64,000 nt of DNA, taken from assembly GCF_016862935.1 (NCBI RefSeq), contig NZ_BONX01000036.1, positions 62,001 through 126,000 on the forward strand, in the 5' to 3' direction. Below the pieces are notes generated by a model. It had not been told where the DNA came from. It made no database searches and saw only the letters and a list, made by a program, of their open reading frames with translations. Shown here piece after piece: positions 26,095 to 59,783 of this stretch. The stretch comes from Plantactinospora mayteni (GTDB lineage: Bacteria; Actinomycetota; Actinomycetes; Mycobacteriales; Micromonosporaceae). How positions within the stretch are numbered: position 1 is the first letter of the stretch; the number at the start of each line of letters is the position of its first letter. The position numbers and the translations under genes are program-made.

Positions 26095-26101
26095 GGCAGC
26101 C

Positions 26102-26131
26102 ATTTTAGCGACCGGTCGGAATTATGGTCAA
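26102..26131 (-). promoter_or_regulatory. Promoter of the antitoxin-toxin operon, probably leaderless
   Basis: On the minus strand TTGACC (26131-26126) and TAAAAT (26107-26102) are separated by 18 bp. Seven bases separate the -10 from the ATG at 26094, so transcription should begin at the start codon. Leaderless mRNAs are common in actinobacteria. Confidence 0.65.
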
Positions 26132-45965: not shown

Positions 45966-48113
45966 TCAGGGCAACGTCCACTTCTGGTTGGCGGCACCGG
46001 CGATGCAGTCCCACAGGTGTACGTCCTGGCCGTCCGCCGAGCTGTTGTTCGAGACGTCCAGGCACTTGCCCGAGCCGGGGTTGCGCAGCGTGCCGTCGGC
46101 CTGGGCGGCCCAGTTCTGTGCCCCGCTGGAGTTGCAGGTCCAGAGCTGGATCTTGGTACCGTTCGCCGTGCCCGAGCCGGAGACGTCGAGGCACTTGCCG
46201 AGGGCCCGCAGGGTCTGGCCGGTGCGCGTCCAGGTCTGCCGGGCCGAGTTGGCGACGCAGGTGCTGATCTGTGCCTGGGTACCGTCGGCGGTGCCGCCAC
46301 CGTCGATCTCCAGGCACTTGCCGGCCAGCCCGACCACCGGCCCGGTCCCGCCGCCACCGGTGGTCGAGCGGACCAGGGTGAACTCGTCGACGTCGTACAG
46401 TCCGGTGCCGGAGCCGGCGACGGTGAGGTAGAGGTTCTGGGTGCCGGTCGGTACCCCGGTCAGCGCGGTGCTGACCTCGGCGTAGCTCTCCCAGCCGCCG
46501 GTGTTGGAGATCGTCGCGGTGCCGTGCACCGGGCCGGTCTGCGAACCGGTCCGGACCTGGAGGGTGCCGCCGGCACCGCCGGAGACGACCCGGGCCCGCA
46601 GCGAGGTGACCCCGGTCAGGTTCTGCCCGTTGTACGCGGCCCAGTCACCCGGGTCCAGGTACCCGATCGTCGACCCGCCGTTGGCGCCGGCCTTGCCGAC
46701 CACCTGGACCCCGCTCTGCGCGCTGAACGCCTCGGCCTGGATCGTGGTGTTCTGGCCCGGGTCCGGGCCGGGGCCGCCGCCGAGTTCCTTGATCCGGATG
46801 TTCCGGAACGAGACGTCGTCGCCGGTGCCGTGGTTCTGGATGCCGATGTGCCCGGCCAGCGACCGTACCGGGTTGGTGTTGGTGAAGTCGTTGATCAGTA
46901 CCCCGTTGAGGTAGATCCGCAGCCGCTCCCCCTCGACCAGCAGCTCGTAGCTGTTCCACTCGCCGGGCGGGTTGAGCGCGGCGTCCCGGGCCGCGATGTC
47001 CGCGGACTTGAAGGTGTAGACCGCGCCGGTGGTCCGGTCGGCCGCGTCGGTGGCGTCGATCTGGATCTCGTAGCCGTTGTCCACCGCCGACCACGGGTCG
47101 GACGACGGTGGGAAGCCGATGAAGACTCCGGAGTTGTCGTCGCCGGCCATCCGCCAGTCCAGCTTCAGCGAGTACGAGGTGAACTGCTTGGCGCTGTACC
47201 AGTAGAGGCCCATGCCGCCGACCGAGGTCAGCGTGGCGTCCGAGTTGGTGAAGTTGCCCGGCCCGGCCTGGGACCAGCCGGTGGTGGAGCCGTTGTAGAG
47301 GGTGGTGTAGCCGGACTCGGGCCGGCAGTCTGCCTTGGTCCGGCCGGCCGCGTACCGGATGCCGCCGAGCAGGTGCGCCCGGAACGCCGGCTCGGCGTAC
47401 GACTGCTGGGTGTGCCCGCCGCCGGTGTAGAAGGAGCGCCCGCCCTCGTACGTCTTGCACCAGGCGTGCGGGTGGTCCGCCCCCATCCCGCCACCGGAGT
47501 ACGACGACTCGTCCAGCGTCGCCAGCACCCGGGCACTGGACCGGGCGTTGGTGCGGTAGTTGTACCACTCGTCGGTGCGGGTCCAGGTCTGCGGCAGGTG
47601 GGCCGTTGCCGCGTGCCCCCGGTCCACCGCCTTCACGTTGGCCTGCTGGATCGCCGGGTGCGACGCGAAGTACGCCCCGACCAGGTTGCCGTAGAACGGC
47701 CAGTCGTACTCGGTGTCGGCGGCGGCGTGCACCCCGACATAGCCCTTCCCGCTGCGGATGTACGACTCGAAGGCGGTCTGCTGGCTGGCGTTCAGGGTGT
47801 CGCCGGTGGTGTTCAGGAAGACCACCACCTCGTACTGGGCGAGGTTGGCGGTGGTGAACTGGGCGGCGTCCTCGGTGGCGGTCACGGTGAAGCTGTTCGC
47901 CGCGCCGAGTTCCCGGATCGCCTGGGTACCGGCGGCGATCGAGTCGTGCCGGAACCCGGCGGTCTTGGAGAAGACCAGTACGTCGTAGGGGGCGTCGGCG
48001 GCGCTGGCCGGACCGGCCGGCACGGTGGTACAGGCCAGCACCGCGAGCGTGGTGGTGGCGATGGCCAGGCTGGGACGGATCGTCTTCCGGGTTCTGCTGC
48101 GGAACAGTCGCAT
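45966..48113 (-). CDS. Secreted ThuA / DUF1080 / CBM6 / ricin multidomain protein
   Basis: The 715-residue protein has a signal peptide (1-39, ending PASA-AD). A ThuA domain follows (about 43-255: VLVFSKTAGFRHDSI, GKGYVGVHAAADTEYDWPFY), then a DUF1080 domain (about 268-452, LamG-like, KLDWRMAGDDNSGVFIGFP). DUF1080 domains are now linked to 3-keto-glycoside hydrolysis and ThuA to keto-sugar metabolism. A CBM6-like module (about 463-592) and a ricin B lectin module with QxW repeats (about 600-715: ARQTWTRTG, AQNWAAQ, NQKWTLP) form the tail. The same tail is found in the neighbouring PQQ dehydrogenase, suggesting both bind the same polysaccharide. The start lies about 30 bp after the neighbour's terminator, so expression may depend on read-through. 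Confidence 0.88.
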   Translation of the reverse strand: MRLFRSRTRKTIRPSLAIATTTLAVLACTTVPAGPASAADAPYDVLVFSKTAGFRHDSIAAGTQAIRELGAANSFTVTATEDAAQFTTANLAQYEVVVFLNTTGDTLNASQQTAFESYIRSGKGYVGVHAAADTEYDWPFYGNLVGAYFASHPAIQQANVKAVDRGHAATAHLPQTWTRTDEWYNYRTNARSSARVLATLDESSYSGGGMGADHPHAWCKTYEGGRSFYTGGGHTQQSYAEPAFRAHLLGGIRYAAGRTKADCRPESGYTTLYNGSTTGWSQAGPGNFTNSDATLTSVGGMGLYWYSAKQFTSYSLKLDWRMAGDDNSGVFIGFPPSSDPWSAVDNGYEIQIDATDAADRTTGAVYTFKSADIAARDAALNPPGEWNSYELLVEGERLRIYLNGVLINDFTNTNPVRSLAGHIGIQNHGTGDDVSFRNIRIKELGGGPGPDPGQNTTIQAEAFSAQSGVQVVGKAGANGGSTIGYLDPGDWAAYNGQNLTGVTSLRARVVSGGAGGTLQVRTGSQTGPVHGTATISNTGGWESYAEVSTALTGVPTGTQNLYLTVAGSGTGLYDVDEFTLVRSTTGGGGTGPVVGLAGKCLEIDGGGTADGTQAQISTCVANSARQTWTRTGQTLRALGKCLDVSGSGTANGTKIQLWTCNSSGAQNWAAQADGTLRNPGSGKCLDVSNNSSADGQDVHLWDCIAGAANQKWTLP

Positions 48114-48185: not shown

Positions 48186-48550
48186 TCAGGGCAGGGTCCA
48201 CTTCTGGTTGGCGGCACCGGCTATGCAGTCCCAGAGGTGCACGTTCTGCCCGTCGGCGGAGCTGTTGTTGGAGACGTCCAGGCACTTGCCCGAGCCGGAG
48301 TTGCGCAGCGAGCCGTCGGCCTGCGGGGCCCAGTTCTGGGCGGCGGTGGCGTTGCAGGTCCAGAGCTGGATCTTGGTGCCGTTCGCGGTGCCGGCGCCGG
48401 AGACGTCCAGACACTTGCCCAGGGTACGCAGGGTCTGGCCGTTCCTCGTCCAGGTCTGGTGTGCCGATCCGGTGCAGGTCCAGATCTGCGCCTGGCTGCC
48501 GTCGGCGGTGCCGCCGGCCTCGATCTCCAGGCACTTCCCGGCCAGCCCGA
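48186..48550. repeat. Direct repeat of ricin-module DNA (partner 45966-46330)
   Basis: About 365 bp encoding the ricin modules of the two neighbouring genes is closely similar and collinear, with only a 3-bp gap. Long identical runs cover the NQKWTLP end. This indicates recent tandem duplication or gene conversion. Confidence 0.8.
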
Positions 48551-51074
48551 CGATCGGGCCGGTGCCGCCGCCCCCACCGGAGCTGCCGGTGTTGACGGTG
48601 AAGGCGTCCACGTCGTAGAGGGCACCGGTGCCGGAGCCGGCGAAGGTCAGGTAGAGCGTGGTGGTGCCGGCCGGCGGGTTGGCGATGGTGCCGGTGACGG
48701 TGGTGAAGGTGTCCCAGCCGCCGGTAACCGGCACGGTGGCGCTGCCCAGTATGGCGCCGGTGGCGGAGCCGGCCCGGAGCTGGATGGTGCCGCCGGCACC
48801 GGCCGACGAGACCCGGGCGCTGAACGAGGTGGCGCCCGCCAGCCGGTACGGCGTGAAGGCGATCCAGTCACCGTTGTTGATGTCGCCGACGGTCTGGCCG
48901 CCCTCGGCCGCCGCCTTGGCGAACTTGTTCACCCCGGACGAGGTCTCGTAGTGCTCGGCCTGCCGGTGCTTCGGGGTCAGCTCGTGCTGGGCGTGCGTGG
49001 TCAGCCCGCCCCGGTCGGTGTACTCGGCGTCGAAGATCGGGAAGATGTTCGCCGCGTCGTCGTGCTCACCGTCGACCGGGATGGTGATGGTGCCGGTGCA
49101 GCCGGTGGCCGAGGTGATCTGGTGGCCGTGGCTGTCGTGGCCCAGCACGTAGGTCATCTTGACCCGGGAGCAGTCGATGGTGCCGTCCTCCGGGTCGGTG
49201 ACGGTGATCGAGAACGGCACCGCGTCACCGAAGGCGACGAGCTGCCCGCTGGCCGGGGCGGTGATGGTCACCGTCGGCGCGGTGTTGCCGACCCCGATGG
49301 TGACGCTGGCGGTGCCGGTGGCGCCGGCCGGGTCGCGTACGGTCAGCGTCGCCGTGTAGGTGCCGTTCGCGGCGTACGTCTTCGTCGGGTTCGCCGCCGT
49401 CGACGTGGTGCCGTCACCGAACGCCCAGGAGTAGGTCAGCGCCCCGCCCTCCGGGTCGGACGAGCCGGCCGAGGAGAAGGTGACGGTCAGCGGTGCCACC
49501 CCGGAGGTCGGGTTGGCGCTGGCCACCGCGGTCGGGGCCCGGTTGCCGCCGCCGACGTAGTCGAAGCGGTAGAGCGCCGAGTTGGCGTCCCCGTTGAAGT
49601 AGCCGGTGCCGTAGTCGAGCAGGTAGTAGGAGCCGTCCGGCCCGAACGCCGAGTCCATCACCTGCTTGCCGACCCACGGGAAGGTGTCGATGGTGCCGGG
49701 CGAGCCGTCGGCGTTGACGTGGATCGGCTTGATCCAGCCCCGGCCGAACTCGGTGGCGAAGAACTGGCCGTCGAAGGTGGCCGGGAACTTGGTGGTCGAC
49801 GGGTTCGACGCGTCGTAGCGGTAGACCGGGCCGCCCATCGGGGACTCCGAACCGCCGCCGAACTCCGGCGGGCTGCCGGCGTCACCGGCGTACCGGATCC
49901 AGGCCGGGCGGGCCGGCGGCAGGGTGGTCTGGCCGGTGTTCCGGAACGAGTTGTTGGTCGGGCCGCCGGTGCAGTTGTACTTCGCCGCGCCCGGCCCGTC
50001 CGGGAAGGTCCACTCGTTGTACGTCTCGGTGCTGGTGTTCGTCCCGGTGCAGTACGGCCAGCCGTAGTTGCCGGGCGAGGTGATCCGGTTGAACTCGACC
50101 TGCCCGCTCGGGCCCCGGTTGGCGTTGGTGGAGCCGGCGTCCGGGCCGTAGTCGCCGACGTAGACGTGCCCGGTGGCCTTGTCCACGCTCATCCGGAACG
50201 GGTTGCGGAAGCCCATCGCGAAGATCTCGGGCCGGGTGTTCGCGGTACCGGGTGCGAAGAGGTTCCCGCTCGGGATCGAGTACGTCCCGTTCGCGTTCAC
50301 CTTGATCCGCAGGATCTTGCCCCGCAGGTCGTTGGTGTTGCCGGCCGAGCGCTGCGCGTCGTACGCCGGGTAGCGGTTGGTCCGCTCGTCGATCGGTGCG
50401 TAGCCGGCGGACTCGAACGGGTTGGTGTCGTCCCCTGTGGAGAGATAGAGGTTGCCGGCGGCGTCGAAGTCGATGTCCCCGCCGACGTGGCAGCACATCC
50501 CCCGATCCGCCGGTACGTCCAGCACGGTCACCTGGCTGGAGGTGTTGAGGGTGAAGTCGGCGTTCAGGGTGAACCGGGAGAGCCGGTTCACCCCGGCGAA
50601 CGGCGCGAACTGCGCGGGGGTGCCGTTCGCCGGGGCGTCACCGGCCGGCGTGCTCAGCGGCGGGGCGTAGTAGAGGTAGATCTGCCGGTTGGTGGCGAAG
50701 CCGGGGTCGACGCCGACGCCCTGCAACCCCTCCTCGTCGTGGGTGTAGACCGGCAGGGTGCCGAGTACGGCGGTGTTGCCGGCGGCGTCGGTGCGGCGCA
50801 GCGTGCCGTTGCGGGCGGTGTGCAGCACCGAGCGGTCCGGCAGCACCGCGATGGTCATCGGCTCGCCCACCTCGGCGACGCCACGGGCCAGGGTCACCTG
50901 CTGGAAGTCGGAGGCGGTGATCGGGTGCGCCACGGCGGGGGCGGCCGGGGCGAGTACCGCCGGGAGGGTGGTGGCGGCCAGCAGCAGCGCGGCGCCGCCG
51001 GCCCACCGCCGGGGTCCTGTCGGATGCGCGCGGCCGGATCGGCCGGGTGGGCGGGGATGGTGGGTGAGAGACAT
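48186..51074 (-). CDS. Secreted PQQ-dependent sugar dehydrogenase with PKD, CBM6 and ricin domains
   Basis: ATG 51074 (MSLTHHPRPPGRSG) is chosen because it leads directly into a signal peptide (about 1-48) and has GGAG nine bases upstream; the longer frame is Arg-rich and unlikely. The 962-residue protein has a glucose/sorbosone dehydrogenase propeller (about 55-490: AVLPDRSVLHTARNG, DEEGLQGVGVDPGF, HVGGDIDFDAAGNLYLSTGDD, VYVGDYGPDAGS). A PKD domain follows (about 515-600, YSWAFGDGTTS), then an intermediate beta region, a CBM6-like module and a C-terminal ricin lectin (QxW repeats AHQTWTRNG, AQNWAPQ, NQKWTLP). It oxidises sugars outside the cell, possibly feeding keto-sugars to the ThuA/DUF1080 partner. 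Confidence 0.9.
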   Translation of the reverse strand: MSLTHHPRPPGRSGRAHPTGPRRWAGGAALLLAATTLPAVLAPAAPAVAHPITASDFQQVTLARGVAEVGEPMTIAVLPDRSVLHTARNGTLRRTDAAGNTAVLGTLPVYTHDEEGLQGVGVDPGFATNRQIYLYYAPPLSTPAGDAPANGTPAQFAPFAGVNRLSRFTLNADFTLNTSSQVTVLDVPADRGMCCHVGGDIDFDAAGNLYLSTGDDTNPFESAGYAPIDERTNRYPAYDAQRSAGNTNDLRGKILRIKVNANGTYSIPSGNLFAPGTANTRPEIFAMGFRNPFRMSVDKATGHVYVGDYGPDAGSTNANRGPSGQVEFNRITSPGNYGWPYCTGTNTSTETYNEWTFPDGPGAAKYNCTGGPTNNSFRNTGQTTLPPARPAWIRYAGDAGSPPEFGGGSESPMGGPVYRYDASNPSTTKFPATFDGQFFATEFGRGWIKPIHVNADGSPGTIDTFPWVGKQVMDSAFGPDGSYYLLDYGTGYFNGDANSALYRFDYVGGGNRAPTAVASANPTSGVAPLTVTFSSAGSSDPEGGALTYSWAFGDGTTSTAANPTKTYAANGTYTATLTVRDPAGATGTASVTIGVGNTAPTVTITAPASGQLVAFGDAVPFSITVTDPEDGTIDCSRVKMTYVLGHDSHGHQITSATGCTGTITIPVDGEHDDAANIFPIFDAEYTDRGGLTTHAQHELTPKHRQAEHYETSSGVNKFAKAAAEGGQTVGDINNGDWIAFTPYRLAGATSFSARVSSAGAGGTIQLRAGSATGAILGSATVPVTGGWDTFTTVTGTIANPPAGTTTLYLTFAGSGTGALYDVDAFTVNTGSSGGGGGTGPIVGLAGKCLEIEAGGTADGSQAQIWTCTGSAHQTWTRNGQTLRTLGKCLDVSGAGTANGTKIQLWTCNATAAQNWAPQADGSLRNSGSGKCLDVSNNSSADGQNVHLWDCIAGAANQKWTLP

Positions 51075-51434
51075 GGTCGTGCACTCCCGTCCTGACCAGT
51101 TGCGATACAGGCAGGGCGCTCGCCGTCGCGCCAGATGCCGTCGGGGTGGATCTCCGCCCGGGGGCCGCCGTTCCCGCCAAGCCGCGACCGTGGACCGGCA
51201 TGGGCACACCGGTACGCCGATCGCTGTCGTGGGCTAACCGCGCCGTCGGTTACCTCGACGTAACAACTTTGAGCTGTGCTCGACACAGTAATTTCTATGT
51301 GTGGATGTGTCTATGCCTTCTGCCACGCCAACATGAACTTTTGTCGACACGGTGAAAAGTTGCCGGACCAGTGATCGACTAGCGCCTCTCCGCGCCACTG
51401 TGGACCGTCCGGCCGACCACCCCGCCGCGCGGCG
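51075..51434. other. Intergenic region upstream of the PQQ dehydrogenase
   Basis: The stretch 51255-51365 is clearly AT-richer than its surroundings, as expected of a promoter region. It holds two inverted repeats: CTGTG-CTCGA-CACAG at 51274-51288 and AACTTTT/AAAAGTT at 51336-51342 with 51355-51361. The first could be an operator for the minus-strand dehydrogenase. The second, nearer the convergent end of the prenyl synthase gene, could be an operator or a terminator. No gene is seen. Confidence 0.45.
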
Positions 51435-52502
51435 TTATCCGTGCCGTTCCACGGCCTCGGCAGCCAGGGTGGCGAGCACCGTGGCGGCCTCGGCGGAGAC
51501 CGGCGCCTCGGCCAGCGCCGCCAGCGCGGCGTCGGTGCGTACCTTGATCATCTGCTCGATCCGGTCCAATGCACCGGTCGCCACGATGATCGATCGCAGC
51601 TCGGCGGCGCCGTCCGGGTCCAGCTCCGGGTTGCCGAAGAGCGCCTTCAACCGCTGCGCCTGGGCCCGGTCGGCACTCCCCCGGGCCAACGCCATCATCA
51701 CCGTCGGCTTCCCCTCGCGCAGATCGTCCAGGATGGACTTGCCGGTCAGCGCCGGATCGCCGAAGACCCCGAGCACGTCGTCCCGGAGCTGGAACGCGTC
51801 GCCCAGCGGGTCGCCGAACGCGGCCAGCGCGCCGAGCAGCTCCGGCGAACCGGCCGCCAGTGCGGCACCGATCTGCAACGGCCGGGTCACCGTGTAGCGG
51901 GCCGCCTTCATCCGCACCACGGTCAGCGCGCTCGCCACCGAACCGTCCCCCACCCCGGAGACCAGGTCCAGATACTGCCCCGCGATCACCTCGGTACGCA
52001 TCGTCGCGAAGACGCCGTACCCCTGGTGCACCTCCGCCGGGGAGAGCCCGCACTCGTGGAAGAGCTGGTCCGCCCAGGCCGCGCAGAGGTCACCGCAGAG
52101 CAGCGCGGTGCTGCGGCCGTACGAGGCCGGGTCGCCGCGCCAGGCCGACCGGGCGTGCAGGTCGGCGAAGAGCCGGTGCACCGAGGGCTCGCCCCGGCGC
52201 CGGTCGCTGCCGTCCATGATGTCGTCGTGGATCAGCGCGAAGGCGTGGAACAGCTCCAGCGCGGCGGCGGCGGCCACGATCGGCGTACCGTCCGCACCCC
52301 CGGCGGCCCGCCAGCCCCAGTAGCAGAAGAGCGGGCGCAGCCGCTTGCCGCCGGCCAGCACGAACCGGTGCAGGGTGGTGAAGACGCCCCGGGGGGCGCC
52401 GTCCGGCCAGTCCGGGTCCTGCCGGTCGAGGAAGGCGACGAGTTGGGCGTCGAAGCGCTTCCGTAGGTCGCCCAGATCCACCTCCGGCACGGTCGCCGTC
52501 AT
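51435..52502 (-). CDS. Polyprenyl (geranylgeranyl-type) diphosphate synthase
   Basis: The enzyme condenses isopentenyl diphosphate with an allylic diphosphate to make a C15-C25 prenyl donor. The 355-residue protein carries GGKRLRPLFCYWG, the first aspartate-rich motif DDIMD (in ALIHDDIMDGSDRRRGEPSVH) and the second, DDVLG (in FQLRDDVLGVFGDPALTGKSILDD), with KPTVMM after it. ATG 52502 overlaps the upstream phosphatase-like gene's stop by 4 bp (ATGA). It is the last gene of the eight-gene ebo-type operon and would supply the prenyl chain for the UbiA enzyme. Chain length cannot be fixed from the motif alone. Confidence 0.92.
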   Translation of the reverse strand: MTATVPEVDLGDLRKRFDAQLVAFLDRQDPDWPDGAPRGVFTTLHRFVLAGGKRLRPLFCYWGWRAAGGADGTPIVAAAAALELFHAFALIHDDIMDGSDRRRGEPSVHRLFADLHARSAWRGDPASYGRSTALLCGDLCAAWADQLFHECGLSPAEVHQGYGVFATMRTEVIAGQYLDLVSGVGDGSVASALTVVRMKAARYTVTRPLQIGAALAAGSPELLGALAAFGDPLGDAFQLRDDVLGVFGDPALTGKSILDDLREGKPTVMMALARGSADRAQAQRLKALFGNPELDPDGAAELRSIIVATGALDRIEQMIKVRTDAALAALAEAPVSAEAATVLATLAAEAVERHG

Positions 52503-53911
52503 GGCCGATCTCCCAGGGCAGCGGCGGGATCGGCGTCGGCGAGGCGGAGCAGCAGGCTCTTGACCTCGGTGGCCCGGTAGCTGTCCCGGGCCGCCGACCG
52601 GTCCGAGCAGATCAGCACCGGGGCGTCCGCCGGATCGGCGGGCAGCCGGCCGTGCGAGCCGCGTACCGCCCGCGCGCCGGCGTCCAGCCCCACCACGCTC
52701 ATCAGGTAGCGCATCCCGAGCTTCTTCCGGGCCAGCGCCACCGCCGCCCGCCGCTTCGCCGCACCCGGCGCGGCCGGGTCGAAGAAGAGTTCGGCCGGGT
52801 CGTACCCGGGTTTGCGGTGGATCTCCACCAGCCGGGCGAAGTCCGGGGCCCGGGCGTCGTCCAGCCAGTAGTAGTAGCTGAACCAGGCGTCCGGCTCGGC
52901 GACCAGCACCAGCTCGCCGGCCCGTTCGTGGTCCAGCCCGTGTTCCGCCTTGCCGGCGGCGTCCAGCACCTCGGCGACCCCGGGCAGCCCGGCGCAGAGC
53001 TTCGCCACCGCCGGTACGTCGGCCGGGTCCTTCACGTAGACGTGTGCGATCTGGTGGTCGGCGACCGCGAACGCCCGGGAGGTCCACGGGTCGAGGTATT
53101 CCATCCCGTCCTGGGTGTAGACCCGGAGCAGTCCCTCGGAGCGGAGCAGCCGGTTCACGTCCACCGGCCGGCTCGCCTCGGTGATGCCGTACTCCGAGAG
53201 CACCACCACGGTCGCGTTCCGGGCGGCTGCCGCGTCCAGCAGCGGACCGAGTACCGCGTCGAGTTCGGCCGCGGCGGCCGACGCCTGTGGGGACGACGGG
53301 CCGAAGCGTTGCAGGTCGTAGTCGAGGTGCGGGACGTACACCAGCGTCAGGTCGGGATTCTTCTCGACCATGATCTGCTCGGCGGCCCGGCAGATCCATC
53401 GGGACGACGGCAGTCCCGCCCCCGGCCCCCAGTACGTGAACAGCGGAAACCCGCCCAACTTCCCGGTCAGCTCGTCGTGCAGCTCCGGCGGGTCGGTGTA
53501 GCAGTCCGGCTCCTTGCGCCCGTCGGCGTAGTAGATCGGCCGGGGCGTCACCGTCCAGTTCACGTCGGCGCCCATCGCGTACCACCAGCAGACGTTGGCC
53601 ACGGTGTAGTCCGGGCGCGCGCGGCGGGCCGCCTGCCAGACCTTCTCCCCGCCCATCAACGCGTGGTGCTGGCGCCAGAGGAAGACCTCGCCCAGGTCCC
53701 GGAAATACCACCCGTTGCCGACGATGCCGTGCTCGGCCGGCAGCGCCCCGGTGAGCAGGGTCGCCTGCGCCGAGCAGGTCACCGCCGGCAGCACGGTACC
53801 GAGTTCGGCCTGGCAGCCGGCGTCGGCCAGGGCGCGCAGCCGGGGCATGTGGGCCAGCAGCCGGGGGGTCAGCCCGACCACGTCGATCACGACCAGTGGA
53901 CTGTCAGCCAT
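52499..53911 (-). CDS. eboF: Nucleotide pyrophosphatase/alkaline phosphatase-family protein (EboF-like)
   Basis: The 470-residue protein belongs to the type I phosphodiesterase / nucleotide pyrophosphatase branch of the alkaline phosphatase superfamily. The metal and nucleophile region is visible as LVVIDVVGLTPRLL and PAVTCSAQATLLTGALPAEHGIVGNGW, with a Thr likely to be the nucleophile. Further metal-ligand regions are YVPHLDYDLQRFG and VVVLSEYGITEA. There is no signal peptide, so it acts in the cytoplasm. In ebo clusters the phosphatase member is EboF. It overlaps eboE by 8 bp and the prenyl synthase by 4 bp. A role in hydrolysing a phosphoester or diphosphate intermediate is inferred. Confidence 0.82.
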   Translation of the reverse strand: MADSPLVVIDVVGLTPRLLAHMPRLRALADAGCQAELGTVLPAVTCSAQATLLTGALPAEHGIVGNGWYFRDLGEVFLWRQHHALMGGEKVWQAARRARPDYTVANVCWWYAMGADVNWTVTPRPIYYADGRKEPDCYTDPPELHDELTGKLGGFPLFTYWGPGAGLPSSRWICRAAEQIMVEKNPDLTLVYVPHLDYDLQRFGPSSPQASAAAAELDAVLGPLLDAAAARNATVVVLSEYGITEASRPVDVNRLLRSEGLLRVYTQDGMEYLDPWTSRAFAVADHQIAHVYVKDPADVPAVAKLCAGLPGVAEVLDAAGKAEHGLDHERAGELVLVAEPDAWFSYYYWLDDARAPDFARLVEIHRKPGYDPAELFFDPAAPGAAKRRAAVALARKKLGMRYLMSVVGLDAGARAVRGSHGRLPADPADAPVLICSDRSAARDSYRATEVKSLLLRLADADPAAALGDRP

Positions 53912-55166
53912 CGTGCCTCCTCGGCGCGGATGCGGGGGCGGCCGGACCGCCGGGGATTCCGGTCAGGCCGCCGGGGATCCCGGTCAGGCCGCCGGGGATC
54001 CCGGTCAGGCCGAGCGTGACCAGTTCGTCGCGGGCGAAGGCCAGCTCGGCGGCGATTCCGCCGGCCAGCTCCGCGTCCGATCCCGGGCGCTGCGCGGCCG
54101 GCAGCACCCCCCAGGTGTACGTCTCGACGTCCAGGTGGTCGCAGCCGGCGACCGGCCCGGCGAACAGCTCCCGGAGCGCCTCCCGGAGCACCGGAACGGT
54201 GGACTCCAGCGGCGCGGCGGGTACGGCGTGCAGCGGTACGTGGTAGTGCACCCGCCAGGCGCCGGGCAGGTCGGCGGCGAGCGCCGCGTCCAGGTCGTCG
54301 GCGGCGTACGCCGGGTCGGCCGGATCGGCGGCCCTGCCACACGGTTCCGCGCGGGTCTGGTGCAGGAAGCGCGGTTCGACGTACCCGCGCAGGGTGTCGG
54401 CGGCGGCGACCGGATCGGCGGCGGCCAGCGCGGCCGAGACCTGCACCTTCACCACCGGCAGCCCGGCGGCGCGCAGCCGGCCCAGCGCCTCGGCCGGCTG
54501 CTCCCAGGCGCAGGCGAGGTGGGCCAGGTCGAGACAGATGCCGAGCCGGTCGGTGTCCACCCGGGACAGTGCGGCGACCGCCTGGCCGGTCGACTCGACC
54601 ACGCAGCCCGGCTCCGGCTCGAAGCCGACCCGGACCGCCCGGCCGGTACGCCAGGCGATCTGGGTCAGCTTGGCGGCCAACTCGTCCAGCACCCGGGCCG
54701 CCCGGTCGGACTGGCGCTGCCCCCACGGCTCCCGCCAGGCCAGTGGCAGGGTGGAGACCGAGCCCCGGACGGCGTCGTCGGGGAGCAGGTCGACAAGTAC
54801 GGTGGCCAGGTTCAGGGTGTAGACCAGCCGTTCCCGGGTGGTCCAGTCCGGGTGGTAGACGGCCTGCTTCACCACCGGGGCGTGGAAGGACTGGTAGGGG
54901 AACCCGTTCAGGGTCACCACCTCCAGCCCGCGCGCGGTCAGCTCGGCGCGCAGTTTTCGCCGGGTCTGCGGGTCGGCGGCGAGCCCGGCCGCCACCGGCG
55001 CGGCCAGCCACAGCCCCAACCCGAGTACGTCGGCACCCAACCGCTCCCGGATCGGCACCGCGTACGTGTCGAGCTGCCCCAACACCCCGGCCAGGTCCTC
55101 GGCCGGATGCACGTTGGTGCAGTAGCTCAGGTGCACCGTCTGCCCGTCGGCGTGCCGCAGCCGCAT
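53904..55166 (-). CDS. eboE: Metabolite traffic protein EboE (TIM barrel)
   Basis: The 420-residue protein starts MRLRHADGQTVHLSYCTNVHPAEDLAGVL, a hallmark of EboE as I recall it, and continues as a xylose isomerase-like TIM barrel. Metal-site candidates are VGFEPEPGCVVES, ICLDLAHLACAW, VVKVQVSAAL and HVPLHAVP. Its ATG overlaps the stop of the TatD gene by one base (TGATG). The last 40 residues include three tandem LTGIPGG repeats, apparently a species-specific extension. Ebo genes are linked to moving or finishing secondary metabolites such as scytonemin precursors in cyanobacteria; the chemistry of EboE is unknown. Confidence 0.85.
   Translation of the reverse strand: MRLRHADGQTVHLSYCTNVHPAEDLAGVLGQLDTYAVPIRERLGADVLGLGLWLAAPVAAGLAADPQTRRKLRAELTARGLEVVTLNGFPYQSFHAPVVKQAVYHPDWTTRERLVYTLNLATVLVDLLPDDAVRGSVSTLPLAWREPWGQRQSDRAARVLDELAAKLTQIAWRTGRAVRVGFEPEPGCVVESTGQAVAALSRVDTDRLGICLDLAHLACAWEQPAEALGRLRAAGLPVVKVQVSAALAAADPVAAADTLRGYVEPRFLHQTRAEPCGRAADPADPAYAADDLDAALAADLPGAWRVHYHVPLHAVPAAPLESTVPVLREALRELFAGPVAGCDHLDVETYTWGVLPAAQRPGSDAELAGGIAAELAFARDELVTLGLTGIPGGLTGIPGGLTGIPGGPAAPASAPRRHDG
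53947..54009. repeat. Three tandem 21-bp repeats in the eboE 3' end
   Basis: Three contiguous 21-bp units (53947-53967, 53968-53988, 53989-54009) differ by a single base. Each encodes LTGIPGG on the minus strand. Copy number could vary between strains. Confidence 0.9.
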
Positions 55167-56041
55167 CAGCTACCGCCCCGCAGGATCGAGTTCCCCTCGA
55201 AGGTGCCGGGTGTCGCCTCACCCGCCGGCTCGCCAGCGGACTCGTCGTCGGCCAGCTCCAGCCGGCCGGACTGGCCGTAGAACTCCACCGGGTTGCGCCA
55301 GAGCACCCGGTCGACGTCGTCGGCGTCGAATCCGGCGGCCAGCATCGCCTCGCCGGTGGCCCGGGTCAGCAGCGGATCCGACCGGCCCCAGTCGGCGGCC
55401 GAGTTGACCAGCATCCGCTCGGTGCCGTACGTGCGGAGCAGCTCGACCATCCGCGGCGGCGACATCTTGGTCTCCGGATAGATGGAGAAGCCGAGCCAGC
55501 AGCCGCTGTCCCGGACCAGCGGCACGGTCACCTCGTTGAGGTGGTCGATCACCACCCGGCCGGGGTCGAGGCCGGACTCGGCGACCACCGCCAGGCTGCG
55601 TTCGGTGCCCCGGGCCTTGTCCCGGTGCGGGGTGTGCACCAGCGCCGGCAGCTCGTGTGCGACCGCCAGGGCGAGCTGGGCGGCGAAGACCTCGTCCTCC
55701 TCCGGCGTCATCGAGTCGTAGCCGACCTCGCCGACCGCCACCACACCGTCCTTGTCCAGATAGCGGGGCAGCAGGTCGAGCACCTCCCGGCAGCGCGGGT
55801 CGTTGGCCTCCTTCGGGTTCAGCGCGATGGTGGCGTGGTGCCGGATGCCGAACTGGCCGGCCCGGAACGGCTCCCAGCCGACCAGCGAGTCGAAGTAGTC
55901 GACGAAGGAAGCGGCGCTGGTCCGGGGCTGACCGAGCCAGAACGCCGGCTCCACCAGGGCACGTACCCCGGCGGCGGCCATCCGTTCGTAGTCGTCGGTG
56001 GTCCGCGAGGTCATGTGGATGTGCGGGTCGAAGATCCTCAT
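55166..56041 (-). CDS. eboB: TatD-family metal-dependent hydrolase (EboB)
   Basis: The 291-residue protein is a TIM-barrel amidohydrolase of the TatD type. It has the first metal motif in MRIFDPHIHMTSR, then VGEVGYDSM, LVHTPHRDK, VVIDHLNE and NSAADWG, which carry the remaining metal-binding Glu, His and Asp. In ebo operons this is EboB. The start shares one base with the eboA stop (TGATG), and its own stop does the same with eboE, so the three are translated in tandem. The substrate is not known; TatD relatives are nucleases or small-molecule hydrolases. Confidence 0.86.
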   Translation of the reverse strand: MRIFDPHIHMTSRTTDDYERMAAAGVRALVEPAFWLGQPRTSAASFVDYFDSLVGWEPFRAGQFGIRHHATIALNPKEANDPRCREVLDLLPRYLDKDGVVAVGEVGYDSMTPEEDEVFAAQLALAVAHELPALVHTPHRDKARGTERSLAVVAESGLDPGRVVIDHLNEVTVPLVRDSGCWLGFSIYPETKMSPPRMVELLRTYGTERMLVNSAADWGRSDPLLTRATGEAMLAAGFDADDVDRVLWRNPVEFYGQSGRLELADDESAGEPAGEATPGTFEGNSILRGGS

Positions 56042-56727
56042 CACGCCTCCTCCTCCGCGCCCGGCCCGGTCGGGGTCCCCGACCGGTGCGGCACGCTCAG
56101 TCGAGCCAGCAACGCGGTCGCGTCGGCCGGCATGTCCCGGCCGGCCGCCCGGCGCTCGTCGGCGAAGCCGGCCAGCATGGTGGCCAGCTCGGCGTCGGCC
56201 CGGTCGTGGAGCCGGTGCACGGCGGCCAGCGGGATCCCGGTGAAGACGCACTTGAGTACCGCCTGCCGCCAGGCGGCCTGGTCGAGCCGGGTCGAGTACG
56301 GGCCGAGGGCGGCGGAGACCAGCCGGGTGTCGTTGGTCCGGATCGCGTCGTGCAGCAGCGGTACTCCGGCGTCGCCGACCGGCAGCAGCGGCAGGGCACG
56401 CAGCACCGCCCGTCGCTCGGCCGCGTCGCCCTCGCGGTAGCGGGCCTCGACCTGACCGGGCAGCTCGGTCGGGGGCAGCGCGGCGAGCAGCAGTACCCGG
56501 GCCGCGTCGTCGGCGGTCCAGTCCGGCAGGTCGGGCAGGGGTGTCCGCCCGCACCTGCGGCCGGCCGCCGCGAAGAGCCGGCCGAGCGCGGCCGGTTCGG
56601 CCCCGACCCGGCGCAGCGCCTCGGCCAGCCAGTCCCGGTCGAGCAGCCAGTCCCGGTCGGGCAGCCGCCCGTCGGGTACGGCCAGCAGCGCCGCCCGCAG
56701 TCGTTCCAGTTCCGGTTCCGGTTCCAT
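56041..56727 (-). CDS. eboA: EboA domain-containing protein
   Basis: The 228-residue protein is predicted all-helical and lacks catalytic motifs. It contains the EboA-like stretch WTADDAARVLLLAALPP, then EARYREGDAAERRAVLRALPLLP and LHDAIRTNDTRLVSAALGPYSTRLDQAAWRQAVLKCVFTGIPL, typical of the family as I know it. Its function is unknown even in characterised ebo clusters. Presence beside EboB, C, E and F fixes the identification. A 77-bp gap separates it from the upstream isomerase gene, the only gap of note in the operon, so a secondary promoter might lie there. Confidence 0.85.
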   Translation of the reverse strand: MEPEPELERLRAALLAVPDGRLPDRDWLLDRDWLAEALRRVGAEPAALGRLFAAAGRRCGRTPLPDLPDWTADDAARVLLLAALPPTELPGQVEARYREGDAAERRAVLRALPLLPVGDAGVPLLHDAIRTNDTRLVSAALGPYSTRLDQAAWRQAVLKCVFTGIPLAAVHRLHDRADAELATMLAGFADERRAAGRDMPADATALLARLSVPHRSGTPTGPGAEEEA

Positions 56728-56804
56728 CCGGTCCTCCCCAGTCTTTCCGGTGTGGATGGTGGTCGCGGTCCCCCCGGGTCGTACGTCTCAGTCCGGTGTG
56801 CCGT

Positions 56805-57746
56805 TCACCGCCCCCGGTCCGGCACGGTGCTCATGCGCTCCGTCACGAGCCCGGCGTCGGCGGCAGCGGTGCGGAGAAACTCGATCGAGTGCGCCGCCAC
56901 CGACGGGGCCGCGTGCGAGTGCCGGGGCAGCTCGACGGCGACCAGCCCGGCGTAACCGGCCTCGGCCAGCGCCCGCAGTACGGGCGGGAAGTCGATCTCG
57001 CCGGTGCCGAACTCCAGGTGCTCGTGCACTCCCCGGCGCATGTCGTCGATCTGCACGTTGACCAGGTACGGAGCCACCTGCGCCACGCAGTCGGGCACCG
57101 GCTGTGGCTCCAGGCACCGGCAGTGTCCGATGTCGAGGGTGATGCCGAAGCCGGGCGGGGCACCGAGGGCGTCCCGCAACCGCCGCCAGTCGGCGATCTC
57201 GGCCACCAGCATGCCCGGCTCCGGCTCGAACCCGAGCGGCATCCCGGCGGCGTCGGCGACCTCGACCAGCTCGGCACAGCCGGCGACCAGCCGGTCCCAG
57301 GCGGTCGTCGGGTCGACGCCGCTCGGTCGTACCCCGGACCAGAAGGAGACCGCCTCGGCGCCCAGGTCGGCCCCGATCGTGACGGCCCGGCGGAGGAACT
57401 CGACCCGCAGCGCGTTGTCGTCGTGCAGCAGCGTCGGCGCGTGCTTGTGCCAGGGGTCCAGCAGGTAGCGGGCCCCGGTCTCGACCACCACCCCGAGTCC
57501 GTGCGTGGCGAGGCTCCGGCCGACCGCCGCCACCCGGGCCGCAAGCTCGGGGCCGAACGGGTCCAGGTGGTCGTGGTCGAGGGTCAGCGCCACGCCCTGG
57601 TAGCCGAGGTCGGCGATCACCCGCAGCGCGTCGTCCAGCCGGTGGTTGGCGAAGCCGTTGGTCCCGTACCCGAAGCGCAGCCCGGGCACGGCGGGACCGC
57701 CCGTCGAGCCCGGGTCCGGCGCGGCGGGGCCGGCTGCGGCGGTCAT
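56805..57746 (-). CDS. Sugar phosphate isomerase/epimerase-like TIM barrel in the ebo operon
   Basis: The 313-residue protein has a xylose isomerase-like barrel. Visible motifs are FGYGTNGFANHRLDDALRVI, VALTLDHDHLDPFG, VSFWSGVRP, LGFEPEPGMLVAEI, ITLDIGHCRC, VNVQIDDMRRGVHEHLEFG and LVAVELPRHSH. Its layout resembles EboE (note the shared GFEPEPG) and IolE-like enzymes, so it may be an isomerase or dehydratase acting on a cyclitol or keto sugar. It overlaps eboC by 4 bp (ATGA). The combination of two barrels in one ebo operon suggests sequential steps. Confidence 0.85.
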   Translation of the reverse strand: MTAAAGPAAPDPGSTGGPAVPGLRFGYGTNGFANHRLDDALRVIADLGYQGVALTLDHDHLDPFGPELAARVAAVGRSLATHGLGVVVETGARYLLDPWHKHAPTLLHDDNALRVEFLRRAVTIGADLGAEAVSFWSGVRPSGVDPTTAWDRLVAGCAELVEVADAAGMPLGFEPEPGMLVAEIADWRRLRDALGAPPGFGITLDIGHCRCLEPQPVPDCVAQVAPYLVNVQIDDMRRGVHEHLEFGTGEIDFPPVLRALAEAGYAGLVAVELPRHSHAAPSVAAHSIEFLRTAAADAGLVTERMSTVPDRGR

Positions 57747-58630
57747 GTCGGCGAGACCAGTCGGGCGAGGCGGCGGCCGAGCGGGGCGGCGGCGGCGACC
57801 GCGACGCCGAGCAGCGCGGCGCCGGCCCGGGCGACCAGCGCGCCCTGTAGGGCGGGCAGGCCGGTGATGCCGGCGCCGACCGCGGCCCGGACCCGGGACG
57901 CCTGCGGGTCGGCCGCCACCCGGGCCTGCGCGGTGCCGTACTGGAGGCCGTACCAGCCGGCGAGGGCGGCCGGGACCAGGGTCCGCCAGTCGGGGTGGCG
58001 GGCGGGTCGGGCCGGGTCGGCGGTCCGGCGCCGGGCCACTGCGGCGGCGGCCACCGCGGCGGTACCGGCCAGGGTCGCGGCCGGTAGCGTCCGGGTCGCG
58101 CCGGAGACCTCCCGCCGGGAGAGTTCGGTGACCGTGTACGTGTGCGCGGCCACCGTCAGCGCCGCCGGTACCGCCCGGACCACCCGACCCCCGCTGGCGC
58201 CGAGCAGCACGTCCAGCCCCCGGCAGGCGGCCATCACCGCCGGCCCGGCCGGAGTGTTCTTGGCTCGCAGGTCGTACGCCCAGACCGCGCCGGCCAGCGG
58301 CACCGCCACGGCCAGCGCCCGGCGCCCACCGGCCAGCCCGGCGAGCCCGATCCCGGCGGCGGTGAGCCCGGCCGAGACGCCGAGGGCGAGCCCCGGCGAC
58401 ACCCGTCCACTGGGGATCGGCCGCTCCGGTCGCTCCCGCGCGTCGAGTTCGCGGTCCGCCCAGTCGTTGGCGGCCATCCCGGCCCAGTAGAGCAGCACCG
58501 ACGCGCCGGCCAGCCCCGGTACCCGGCGGTCCAGCGCGTCGGCGGCGGCGGCCCCGGCCACCACGTCCCCGGGTACGGAGAGCGCGGCCGGCGCCCGGAC
58601 CAGCTCAGCCAGGTCACGCAGTGACGGCAT
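57743..58630 (-). CDS. eboC: UbiA-type prenyltransferase (EboC / SCO3242 family)
   Basis: The 295-residue integral membrane protein has about eight hydrophobic segments. It carries the first prenyl-diphosphate binding motif NDWADRELDARERPERPIPSG (compare N-D-x-x-D-x-x-x-D) and a second polar loop with AYDLRAKNTPAGP. It should attach a prenyl chain to an acceptor at the membrane. Its ATG lies 17 bp inside the end of the inositol-phosphate synthase gene, so the acceptor-forming enzyme and the prenyltransferase are co-translated. The prenyl donor probably comes from the synthase at the end of the same operon. Confidence 0.9.
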   Translation of the reverse strand: MPSLRDLAELVRAPAALSVPGDVVAGAAAADALDRRVPGLAGASVLLYWAGMAANDWADRELDARERPERPIPSGRVSPGLALGVSAGLTAAGIGLAGLAGGRRALAVAVPLAGAVWAYDLRAKNTPAGPAVMAACRGLDVLLGASGGRVVRAVPAALTVAAHTYTVTELSRREVSGATRTLPAATLAGTAAVAAAAVARRRTADPARPARHPDWRTLVPAALAGWYGLQYGTAQARVAADPQASRVRAAVGAGITGLPALQGALVARAGAALLGVAVAAAAPLGRRLARLVSPT

Positions 58631-59783
58631 CCGCGCCTCCCGAAGTCGGCTCGGCGTCCAGCTCGCGGACGAAGGCGCGCAGCGTGGCCCACTGTTCGGC
58701 GAGGGCGTGCGGCACCTCGCCGAGCGGATCCTTGAAGAAGAACGCCAGCTCGGTCAGCGGGCCGGTCCGGCCGGCCCGGTGCGCGGCGGCGGTCAGCCGG
58801 GCCAGGTCGAGCACCAGCGGCGCGGCGAGCGACGAGTCGCAGCCGTGCCAGGTGAACTCCATCCGCATCGGGGTACCGAGGAAGCCGGAGAAGGTGACCA
58901 GGTCCCAGGCGGTCTTGAAGTCCCCGATGTCGTCGACGTACTCGATCCGGGTGTTGCCCTGCGGGACATAGCCGAGGGTCTCGCCGAGTACCCGCTGCTT
59001 GCTGGCGGACTTGGCCGCGTTCGCCGCCGGCTCGGCCAGGTTGGCGCCGTCCCCGCCGCCGAGCAGGTTGGTGCCGGACCAGCTCCGTACCCGCAGGTGC
59101 CGCATGGCGAACATCGGGGCGAGGACCGACTTGACCAGCGTCTCGCCGGTCTTGCCGTCGTGCCCGGCGTACGGGAGGCCGGCCCGTTGCGCGAGTTCGG
59201 CGAGGGCGGGCAGTCGGGCGCCGGTCGACGGCGTGAAGTCCACATAGGGGCAACCGGCGGTGAAGGCGGCGTACGCGTACGCGGAGCTGGCCGGCAGCGG
59301 GCTCCCCTCGGCGAGCGCAACGTCCAGTTCGGAGAGTCGGGCGTGTGCCGGATGCGGCGCCGGGGCCGGCTCGGTCGAGGAGACGTTGACCACCACCACC
59401 CGGTCCAGCCCGTGCCGTTCGCGGAATCCGGTCAGGTCGGCGACGATCGCCTCGATCACCGCCGCCTGGGTGCCACCGGTCGGTGCCGGCCGCAGTTCGG
59501 CCTCGACCGTGCCGAGTTCCTCGGCCAGTGCCGCCACCAGCCGGGCCGGCAGTACGCCCGCCTCGGCCAGCGCCTCGGCCTTCTTCACCAGCGGCGTGGT
59601 GGCGATGTCGTGCCCACCGAAGACCAGGTCGGCCAGGGCCGGCAGGGCCGCGGTACGCAGCGCCGGCAGCTCGGTCACGCAACCCGTCGGCTCGGCGAGC
59701 CCGGCCCGCAGGGCCAACGCCCCGACCGTGCTGGTCACCGCGACCGAACCACGTCCGCCTACCAGCCAGACACCCGTACGCAT
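58614..59783 (-). CDS. ino1: myo-Inositol-1-phosphate synthase-family protein
   Basis: These NAD-dependent enzymes cyclise glucose-6-phosphate to inositol-1-phosphate. ATG 59783 follows GGAGG and is preferred to the much longer frame. The 389-residue product is the short actinobacterial/archaeal size. It shows the NAD-binding start VWLVGGRGSVAVTSTVGALAL, VVVVNVSSTEP, GHDGKTGETLVKSVLAPMF and WSGTNLLGGGDGANLAEP. KSASKQ, YVDDIGDFKTAWD and a conserved MEFTWHGCDSSLAAPLVLDL region follow. It is the first gene of the ebo-type operon. I infer that it makes the cyclitol head group, taking the place of EboD, the sugar-phosphate cyclase normally found in ebo clusters. Confidence 0.88.
   Translation of the reverse strand: MRTGVWLVGGRGSVAVTSTVGALALRAGLAEPTGCVTELPALRTAALPALADLVFGGHDIATTPLVKKAEALAEAGVLPARLVAALAEELGTVEAELRPAPTGGTQAAVIEAIVADLTGFRERHGLDRVVVVNVSSTEPAPAPHPAHARLSELDVALAEGSPLPASSAYAYAAFTAGCPYVDFTPSTGARLPALAELAQRAGLPYAGHDGKTGETLVKSVLAPMFAMRHLRVRSWSGTNLLGGGDGANLAEPAANAAKSASKQRVLGETLGYVPQGNTRIEYVDDIGDFKTAWDLVTFSGFLGTPMRMEFTWHGCDSSLAAPLVLDLARLTAAAHRAGRTGPLTELAFFFKDPLGEVPHALAEQWATLRAFVRELDAEPTSGGADAVTA

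What the first reader, a model, noticed from the sequence alone, without database searches (positions are those of the whole stretch)
51435..59783. Eight-gene ebo-type operon with an inositol-phosphate synthase in place of EboD and its own prenyl donor synthase
Seen: eight minus-strand genes, most overlapping by 1-17 bp, in the order inositol-phosphate synthase, UbiA, TIM-barrel isomerase, EboA, TatD, EboE, phosphatase-like, polyprenyl synthase. Known: ebo clusters carry eboA-F, with EboD a dehydroquinate-synthase-like sugar-phosphate cyclase, and are linked to metabolite trafficking. Inferred: the inositol-phosphate synthase supplies the cyclised sugar instead of EboD. UbiA then joins it to a prenyl chain made by the last gene, giving a prenylated cyclitol lipid or carrier. 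This would put a chemical meaning on ebo genes whose function is unknown.
Basis: partly seen in the sequence, partly recalled or inferred. Interest (0 to 1): 0.78.

Follow-up and report, generated by a model that had tools for sequence, protein, structure and literature searches.

The report
Ebo cluster using inositol-phosphate synthase
Many actinobacteria carry a version of the widespread but unexplained 'ebo' gene cluster in which an inositol-making enzyme stands where other bacteria have a different sugar-ring-forming enzyme, which suggests that the cluster builds a ring-sugar-derived, fat-tailed molecule and makes that idea testable.

Summary
The eight genes are real, at the stated coordinates, in one minus-strand run with six of seven junctions overlapping. 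Five are ebo components (A, B, a C-like UbiA, E, F); the first is an archaeal-type inositol-phosphate synthase (INO1) with the main catalytic residues kept. The swap is general: in 182 fetched loci plus the window, INO1 is in 145, EboD in 10, both in none. An EboD-type model reaches its cut-off in 0 of 397 genomes of the host's order; EboE does in 113. INO1 travels with gene 3, a second TIM barrel (144 of 145). The host has another INO1 elsewhere. One Gemmatimonadota plasmid is a mosaic hinting that cyclase and prenyltransferase move as a matched set. The polyprenyl synthase is lineage-specific. A prenylated-cyclitol product was already proposed in 2016 for EboD clusters; my searches found no mention of the INO1 form. 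New lead: glucose/sorbosone-dehydrogenase-type proteins lie beside 11 of 20 clusters (0.47 expected by density, kinship uncorrected), so the product may serve extracytoplasmic oxidation. No product or activity is shown. Verdict: new variant of a known kind, widespread, with testable chemistry.

The parts
58614..59783 (-). INO1: archaeal-type myo-inositol-phosphate synthase, first gene of the run
   Evidence: PF07994 173 bits, PF01658 106 bits; closest solved structure Archaeoglobus fulgidus 1u1i, 236 bits, versus M. tuberculosis 1gr0, 40 bits; catalytic lysines and others conserved
57743..58630 (-). UbiA-superfamily prenyltransferase, SCO3242 family (relative of EboC)
   Evidence: NF045897 384 bits over cut-off 260; NDxxDxxxD and YDxxxK motifs
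56805..57746 (-). gene 3: xylose-isomerase-like TIM barrel that accompanies INO1
   Evidence: PF01261 135 bits; over 250 bits with INO1 in 88/88, 3/3 and 52/53 loci, with EboD in 0/10
56041..56727 (-). EboA-domain protein, predicted all-helical
   Evidence: NF035938 164 bits over cut-off 50; AlphaFold2 pLDDT 93
55166..56041 (-). EboB: TatD-like metal-dependent hydrolase
   Evidence: PF01026 46 bits; HxH, E, H, D positions conserved
53904..55166 (-). EboE: TIM-barrel protein
   Evidence: NF035939 411 bits over cut-off 250
52499..53911 (-). EboF: type I phosphodiesterase/nucleotide pyrophosphatase family with altered metal-site residues
   Evidence: PF01663 225 bits; substitutions invariant in 115/115
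51435..52502 (-). polyprenyl diphosphate synthase, lineage-specific
   Evidence: PF00348 158 bits; best NCBIfam model is a farnesyl/geranyl diphosphate synthase, 318 bits but below its cut-off 600; one DDIMD motif
48186..51209 (-). neighbour: GSDH-domain protein with PKD, CBM6 and ricin-type lectin domains (start uncertain; read as secreted, not tested)
   Evidence: PF07995 115 bits; recurrent neighbour
45966..48113 (-). neighbour: ThuA + 3-keto-disaccharide hydrolase protein (read as secreted, not tested)
   Evidence: PF06283 274 bits, PF06439 131 bits
44571..45578 (-). neighbour: further xylose-isomerase-like TIM barrel
   Evidence: PF01261 154 bits
60562..61770 (-). neighbour upstream: Gfo/Idh/MocA oxidoreductase
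   Evidence: PF01408 98 bits
61792..63926 (-). neighbour upstream: sugar ABC transporter binding protein and permease
   Evidence: PF13407 118 bits, PF02653 133 bits

Best explanation
This is the prevailing actinobacterial form of the ebo cluster. Where other bacteria use EboD (a sugar-phosphate cyclase) to close a sugar into a cyclitol, this form uses an archaeal-type inositol-phosphate synthase together with an extra TIM-barrel enzyme (gene 3). Shown: the genes, the near-perfect linkage of INO1 with gene 3, the mutual exclusion with EboD, the conserved INO1 catalytic residues and UbiA motifs. Inferred: INO1 turns glucose 6-phosphate into inositol phosphate; gene 3 and EboE (both keep an E-D-Q-E set where relatives bind metal, by recall) reshape the ring by isomerisation or dehydration; the UbiA-type enzyme attaches a short prenyl chain (C10-C20, guessed from family hits; made by the cluster's own synthase where present); EboB and EboF process the head group; helical EboA holds the proteins together. 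The product would be a membrane-bound or exported prenylated cyclitol derivative.
For: EboD in 10, INO1 in 145, both in 0 of 183 loci including the window. EboD-type model NF004852 over cut-off in 0 of 397 genomes of the order, where EboE is over cut-off in 113. Both forms occur in one family, f42: G381 and G601 EboD, G513 and G591 INO1. INO1: 11 of 15 positions looked at, among them D225, N255, D261, K274, K278, K306, D332 and K367, are invariant in 89/89 and as in the A. fulgidus enzyme. Separate INO1 elsewhere in the host and in most genomes with the form. Gemmatirosa mosaic: its EboB with the INO1 group is rejected (AU p 5e-6); its UbiA with EboB's partners is rejected (p 8e-4) and scores higher on the SCO3242 model (172) than on EboC (136), both below cut-off.
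Against: No product or activity is known. INO1 yields a phosphorylated inositol and EboD's characterised relatives an unphosphorylated keto-cyclitol (PMC5133447), so the products cannot be identical. The EboC-type enzymes assayed in the one paper I found were tested on 14 aromatic acceptors and used six (PMC9235831, passages). Three clusters with room upstream have neither cyclase (L026, L044, L210); L189 has INO1 without UbiA or gene 3. In G268 (100% complete) the cluster INO1 is the only one found; likewise in G318 (82% complete). INO1 position 259 is G in 88 of 89 where A. fulgidus has D; 230 is E in 79 and 310 is D in 86 of 89. The Gemmatirosa UbiA lies between the two groups, its EboE and EboF are unresolved (AU p 0.51 and 0.32), and it is a single mosaic. 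An annotated sugar-phosphate isomerase also lies beside the EboD cluster of Ketogulonicigenium, though it does not match the gene-3 profile.
Confidence: 0.5

Rival explanations
1. The UbiA acceptor is an aromatic or other metabolite and INO1 serves a separate branch, for example an inositol head group on a lipid carrier that moves metabolites across the membrane, as proposed for scytonemin monomer export.
For: Ubi-297 (an EboC-type enzyme) farnesylated 6 of 14 aromatic acceptors, best 8-hydroxyquinoline-2-carboxylic acid (PMC9235831, passages). In Nostoc the monomer stays in the cytoplasm of ebo mutants (PMC6282210, section 5 read). Some Streptomyces clusters lie near NRPS or type II PKS genes.
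Against: It does not explain why a cyclase is nearly always in the cluster, of two unrelated kinds, never both, nor the mosaic cluster in which INO1 and UbiA depart together from EboB.
Confidence: 0.25
2. The cluster INO1 has been retuned to another ring, like Ari2, which makes a five-membered cyclitol phosphate from fructose 6-phosphate, so the product is not an inositol.
For: The family contains a solved five-membered-cyclitol-phosphate synthase (6k96) and Ari2 is an INO1 orthologue (PMC11188666, passages). The actinobacterial cluster INO1s group together, distant from the hosts' actinobacterial-type INO1. Position 259 differs from the archaeal enzyme in 88 of 89.
Against: The cluster INO1 is closest to the archaeal inositol-phosphate synthase (236 bits; 6k96 only 65 bits) and keeps its catalytic lysines in 89/89.
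Confidence: 0.12
3. The run is part of a catabolic locus for exotic sugars or cyclitols (ABC transporter, Gfo/Idh/MocA, TIM barrels, ThuA/3-keto-disaccharide hydrolase) and makes no lipid.
For: These genes flank the run on the same strand in the window and in most Micromonospora loci.
Against: INO1 is biosynthetic; UbiA-superfamily enzymes build prenylated molecules; the run occurs without matches to these neighbours in Catellatospora, Nonomuraea and most plasmid loci.
Confidence: 0.08

Closest known systems
ebo operon (eboA-F) of Bacteroidota, Cyanobacteria, Pseudomonadota and eustigmatophyte plastids (PMC5133447, passages)
   Same: EboA domain, TatD-like EboB, UbiA-superfamily enzyme, EboE, EboF, tight clustering
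   Different: EboD absent; INO1 plus an extra TIM barrel present; UbiA of the SCO3242 family; order INO1-UbiA-gene3-A-B-E-F
SCO3242/SCO3243 gene pair in the calcium-dependent antibiotic region of Streptomyces coelicolor (listed as 'putative transferase' and 'myo-inositol phosphate synthase' in PMC3610822, passages)
   Same: NCBIfam names the prenyltransferase family after SCO3242; pair of INO1 and SCO3242-type prenyltransferase
   Different: the passages seen treat them only as antibiotic-cluster genes, with no ebo link; I did not fetch that locus
Ubi-297 / EboC of Maribacter (PMC9235831, passages)
   Same: UbiA-superfamily enzyme in an ebo context; assayed farnesyltransferase
   Different: the text describes EboA-E with EboD; 14 aromatic acceptors tested; its figure includes Saccharomonospora, whose gene order I could not see
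Ari2 of aristeromycin biosynthesis (PMC11188666, passages)
   Same: INO1 homologue recruited to specialised metabolism
   Different: makes a five-membered ring; the solved family member 6k96 matches the window INO1 at only 65 bits

Membership tests
ebo operon | EboA, EboB, EboE and EboF homologues adjacent | tested here: met
ebo operon | EboC (NF035940 over cut-off) | tested here: not met
   119 bits against cut-off 250; SCO3242 family instead, 384 against 260. Of 6 EboD-type UbiA proteins scanned, only that of Aureibacter passes the EboC cut-off, so the model is narrow
ebo operon | EboD sugar-phosphate cyclase | tested here: not met
   none over threshold in the locus or genome
ebo operon | role in export or periplasmic chemistry | not testable with these tools
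   described for Nostoc scytonemin (PMC6282210)
myo-inositol-phosphate synthase | both Pfam domains over cut-off | tested here: met
myo-inositol-phosphate synthase | catalytic lysines and neighbours of the A. fulgidus enzyme (roles partly recalled; variant chains at 255, 278 and 367 seen) | tested here: met
   89/89 at D225, N255, D261, K274, K278, K306, D332, K367; but position 259 is G for D in 88/89
myo-inositol-phosphate synthase | activity on glucose 6-phosphate | not testable with these tools
   bench assay needed
UbiA superfamily | two Asp-rich motifs | tested here: met
   first motif N, D, D, D in 89 of 90 rows without EboD (one gap) and 9/9 with EboD; second motif reads YDxxxK in 90/90, and in EboD rows D 7/9 and K 8/9
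two-metal type I phosphodiesterase/NPP | D/H ligands at the metal site (ligand list recalled) | tested here: not met
   EboF reads D..Q, S-E-Y-G where phosphonoacetate hydrolase has D..H and D-H-G; Q, E and Y in 115/115

The most novel reading that the evidence does not exclude
Ebo clusters of both kinds make a prenylated, cyclitol-derived (perhaps aromatised, quinone-like) cofactor or membrane electron carrier that serves extracytoplasmic oxidoreductases, mostly beta-propellers. INO1 with a Gfo/Idh-type enzyme and TIM barrels, or EboD, would build the ring; UbiA would add the tail. This would unite the GSDH-type neighbours in actinobacteria, the ScyD/ScyE-like and galactose-oxidase-like neighbours, the PQQ-type dehydrogenase beside the Salipiger cluster, and the finding that ebo and scyE mutants of Nostoc stop at the same intermediate before its periplasmic oxidation.
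Probability: 0.15. Interest if true: 0.88.

Novelty: new variant of a known kind. Interest (0 to 1): 0.62.

Why it matters
Ebo genes are spread over many phyla and into algal plastids, yet their product is unknown. A natural swap between two unrelated ring-closing enzymes, each with its own type of prenyltransferase, is the kind of evidence that narrows the chemistry: the swapped set should define the ring, the shared genes (EboA, B, E, F) the rest. Inositol is cheap to label, so the INO1 form offers an experimental route to the product that EboD forms do not.

Tried and rejected
Rejected: INO1 as a recent duplicate of the host's other copy (28% identity to it over the 242 columns compared; 25-28% to the four actinobacterial-type copies in the tree). 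In three genomes of family f16 the second copy is more similar (38-39%), so this does not hold everywhere. Rejected: a second, EboD-bearing ebo cluster in the host; its second EboE (C23) has no other ebo gene near it and lies beside a GSDH-domain gene. Rejected: the host's cyclase at C44 as EboD (212 bits, cut-off 333, separate locus). The EboA fold search gave no significant match (best E 0.13, weak helical-repeat resemblance). The polyprenyl-synthase motif count is void, because I had cut the window's gene out of frame; one search shows the correct frame and one DDIMD motif, and chain length remains a guess. Literature: no paper found that links inositol-phosphate synthase with ebo (searches; open-licence PMC only); a 2022 paper on the EDB cluster of P. 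fluorescens, known to me only from a reference list, is not held, so I could not see whether it assays EboD. Tree tests for EboE and EboF of Gemmatirosa were inconclusive.
Full report
Observation. The eight genes are present as described. Family models confirm each assignment, with one refinement: the prenyltransferase passes the curated model of the SCO3242 family (384 bits, cut-off 260) and not that of EboC (119 bits, cut-off 250). Six of seven junctions overlap; a 77-bp gap separates gene 3 and EboA.

How common the arrangement is. I collected EboE-bearing loci three ways. Set A, 116 loci: 20 stretches from the 19 of 396 phylum genomes with an EboE match, the best 80 of 97 relatives in named genomes, and 16 plasmid records chosen from the 49 and 48 found in two searches. 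Set B, 6 stretches from two class-level searches (6 of 299 and 6 of 66 genomes matched, some already in set A). Set C, 60 stretches from the order-level search, in which 119 of 397 genomes matched: 56 stretches from 55 of the 58 matching genomes outside the host's family, and only 4 of the 61 inside it. All 182 were searched with profiles built here. Some entries are near-copies (L089/L090, L093/L095), and named and unnamed sets may share species, so these are counts of loci, not of independent events.

Result. INO1 is present in 88 + 3 + 53 = 144 loci plus the window, EboD in 9 + 1 + 0 = 10, both in none. Of the rest, 8 are lone EboE genes, 17 are cut by a contig end (15, plus L173 and L223), and 3 have room for a cyclase but neither: L026 (its genome has a second cluster with INO1, L028), L044 (with frame-split genes) and L210. 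Sum 144 + 10 + 8 + 17 + 3 = 182. L231 counts as INO1 on a partial match (108 bits). Gene 3 (over 250 bits) accompanies INO1 in 88 of 88, 3 of 3 and 52 of 53 loci and in the window, and EboD in none of 10; the exception, L189, lacks both UbiA and gene 3. The EboD loci are L029 and L172 (an early-branching class of the phylum, by the search's kinship labels) and plasmids of Azospirillum, Ketogulonicigenium, Deinococcus (2), Roseivivax, Salipiger, Mycetohabitans and Aureibacter.

Genome-wide check. The profile of EboD gives 644 bits in G381, an EboD genome, and at most 200 bits in the other 18 genomes. The NCBI model NF004852, named a 3-dehydroquinate synthase, scores 531-571 on three EboD proteins (cut-off 333), so it works as an EboD detector. 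It is over its cut-off in 0 of 397 genomes of the host's order (best 227 bits; at most four candidates per genome were scored), where EboE is over its cut-off in 113. The host's best cyclase, at C44, scores 212.

Is INO1 just housekeeping? The host has two INO1 genes, one on contig C31 and this one. Of 19 EboE genomes, 16 show two INO1 genes. The single-copy ones are G381 (EboD type; its INO1 is outside the cluster), G268 (100% complete; only the cluster copy) and G318 (82% complete; only the cluster copy). In G279 neither of two copies lies in its ebo stretch. Of six more, G513, G591 and G668 have two. The cluster INO1 shares 40% identity with the A. fulgidus enzyme and 25-28% with four actinobacterial-type copies, but 38-39% with the second copies of three f16 genomes; its nearest solved structure is archaeal. 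Of 15 positions looked at, 11 are invariant in 89 of 89 and as in A. fulgidus, including K274, K278, K306 and K367; position 259 is G for D in 88 of 89, and 226, 230 and 310 vary slightly. It is very likely an active cyclase of separate origin; its exact product is open.

Do cyclase and prenyltransferase belong together? Gemmatirosa (L132, Gemmatimonadota) has gene 3, INO1, UbiA, EboF, EboB and a divergent EboE; no EboD or EboA was detected. Its EboB is 72-77% identical to EboB of Deinococcus and L029/L172, all EboD type, and placing it with the INO1 group is rejected (AU p 5e-6). Its UbiA is up to 45% identical to INO1-type but at most 33% to EboD-type enzymes, scores 172 on the SCO3242 model and 136 on EboC, both below cut-off, and placing it with EboB's partners is rejected (p 8e-4). 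In the careful tree it sits on the branch between the two groups. Its EboE and EboF are undecided. The quick INO1 tree puts its INO1 with the archaeal sequence (support 0.97), so a second, independent recruitment of INO1 is possible. The cluster is thus a mosaic in which the UbiA differs in history from EboB, in company with INO1 and gene 3. That favours, without proving, a matched cyclase-prenyltransferase pair.

The other parts. UbiA keeps NDxxDxxxD and YDxxxK. EboE keeps FEPEP, D, Q and E positions in 116 of 116 at the four presumed metal ligands, and gene 3 in 101 of 101 except Q in 98; that these bind metal is recalled from related enzymes. EboB keeps HxH, E, H and D. EboF is odd: where phosphonoacetate hydrolase has D..H and D-H-G, EboF has D..Q and S-E-Y-G, with Q, E and Y in all 115 sequences of both types, while the presumed nucleophile threonine is kept (roles recalled). 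An ordinary two-zinc phosphatase role is therefore doubtful. EboA is predicted as a confident all-helical protein (pLDDT 93) without a significant match among solved structures. A polyprenyl synthase follows EboF in 46 of 48 Micromonospora, 4 of 4 Asanoa, 2 of 2 Plantactinospora, 2 of 2 Paractinoplanes and 1 of 2 Actinoplanes loci with room, but in 0 of 7 Catellatospora, 0 of 3 Nonomuraea and 0 of 15 plasmid loci. One EboD locus (L029) instead carries what reads, by eye, as an isopentenyl-diphosphate isomerase.

A neighbourhood pattern. On the same strand the window has a GSDH-domain protein, a ThuA + 3-keto-disaccharide hydrolase protein, a Gfo/Idh/MocA oxidoreductase and a sugar transporter. 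In 19 genomes a GSDH gene lies within about 12 kb of 11 of 20 clusters, against 0.47 expected from the number per genome (near pairs read by me from the table; kinship between genomes not corrected, so the printed p value of 3e-14 is far too small). In set A a propeller-type protein of six query kinds was found in 69 of 116 loci, 65 of them GSDH, mostly Micromonospora. In set C a GSDH protein is found in 40 of 55 multi-gene clusters, 30 upstream and 10 downstream, and near 0 of 5 lone EboE genes. Other neighbours are a ScyD/ScyE family protein about 110 bp from INO1 in S. camelliae, an NHL-repeat protein (L139), a galactose-oxidase-like protein (L101) and a PQQ-type dehydrogenase beside the EboD cluster of Salipiger. 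Against it: none near 8 of 8 Catellatospora and 3 of 3 Nonomuraea loci or near 13 of 16 plasmid loci, and none within 12 kb in the EboD genome G381. A PQQ-synthesis gene (pqqC) was found in only 2 of 19 genomes. In Nostoc, ebo mutants and the mutant of the periplasmic protein ScyE both stop at the scytonemin monomer, though its location differs, which the authors read as a transport defect (PMC6282210, section 5). These facts motivate the novel case; they do not establish it.

Literature. PMC5133447 (passages) proposed an isoprenoid-cyclitol product with EboD as cyclase, and noted actinobacterial EboA fused to a xylose-isomerase-like domain, which fits gene 3; 'inositol' does not occur in its main text. 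Nor does it occur in PMC6282210 (passages and section 5), PMC9235831 (passages) or PMC6092422 (passages). My searches found no paper tying INO1 to ebo; they cover open-licence papers only.

Verdict. Ordinary in being a conserved, widespread gene set; new as a defined variant whose enzyme swap constrains the chemistry of an unsolved pathway.

Noticed in passing
L137 8989-10167; L043 9380-10555; L170; L204, L224, L228, L229, L230: Lone EboE genes without other ebo genes in the stretch; L137 sits inside a type II polyketide cluster, L043 (the host's second EboE) beside a GSDH-domain protein.
   Followed up: partly
L044 6681-10240: UbiA and EboE of this cluster are each split over two frames, which suggests decay or sequencing error; not mended.
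   Followed up: no
L189 6678-11883: INO1 is kept but UbiA and gene 3 were not found between INO1 and EboA.
   Followed up: no
window 52499-53911 and 114 relatives: EboF lacks the usual D/H metal ligands of its superfamily in every sequence examined, in both cluster types; probably a non-standard enzyme.
   Followed up: partly
L235 8093-10339: A further sugar-phosphate cyclase (212 bits on the EboD-like model, below cut-off) in the host, in a separate locus beside what reads by eye as a Gfo/Idh-type gene.
   Followed up: partly
L136 15469-15792: PLSDB marks a 324-bp 2Fe-2S protein gene as tet(W/32/O) at 100% identity; looks like a mislabel, since a ribosomal protection protein is far longer.
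   Followed up: no
window 25496-26103: Two small adjacent minus-strand genes that read by eye like a toxin-antitoxin pair; no search run.
   Followed up: no
L129 1-12555 and L027: INO1-type ebo cluster near NRPS-associated genes (L129 annotated; L027 by eye), like the S. coelicolor SCO3242/SCO3243 region listed with the CDA cluster.
   Followed up: partly
L134 3048-6066, L135 2064-5124: A hypothetical protein and a ferritin-like protein precede the EboD-type cluster in both Mycetohabitans and Aureibacter.
   Followed up: no
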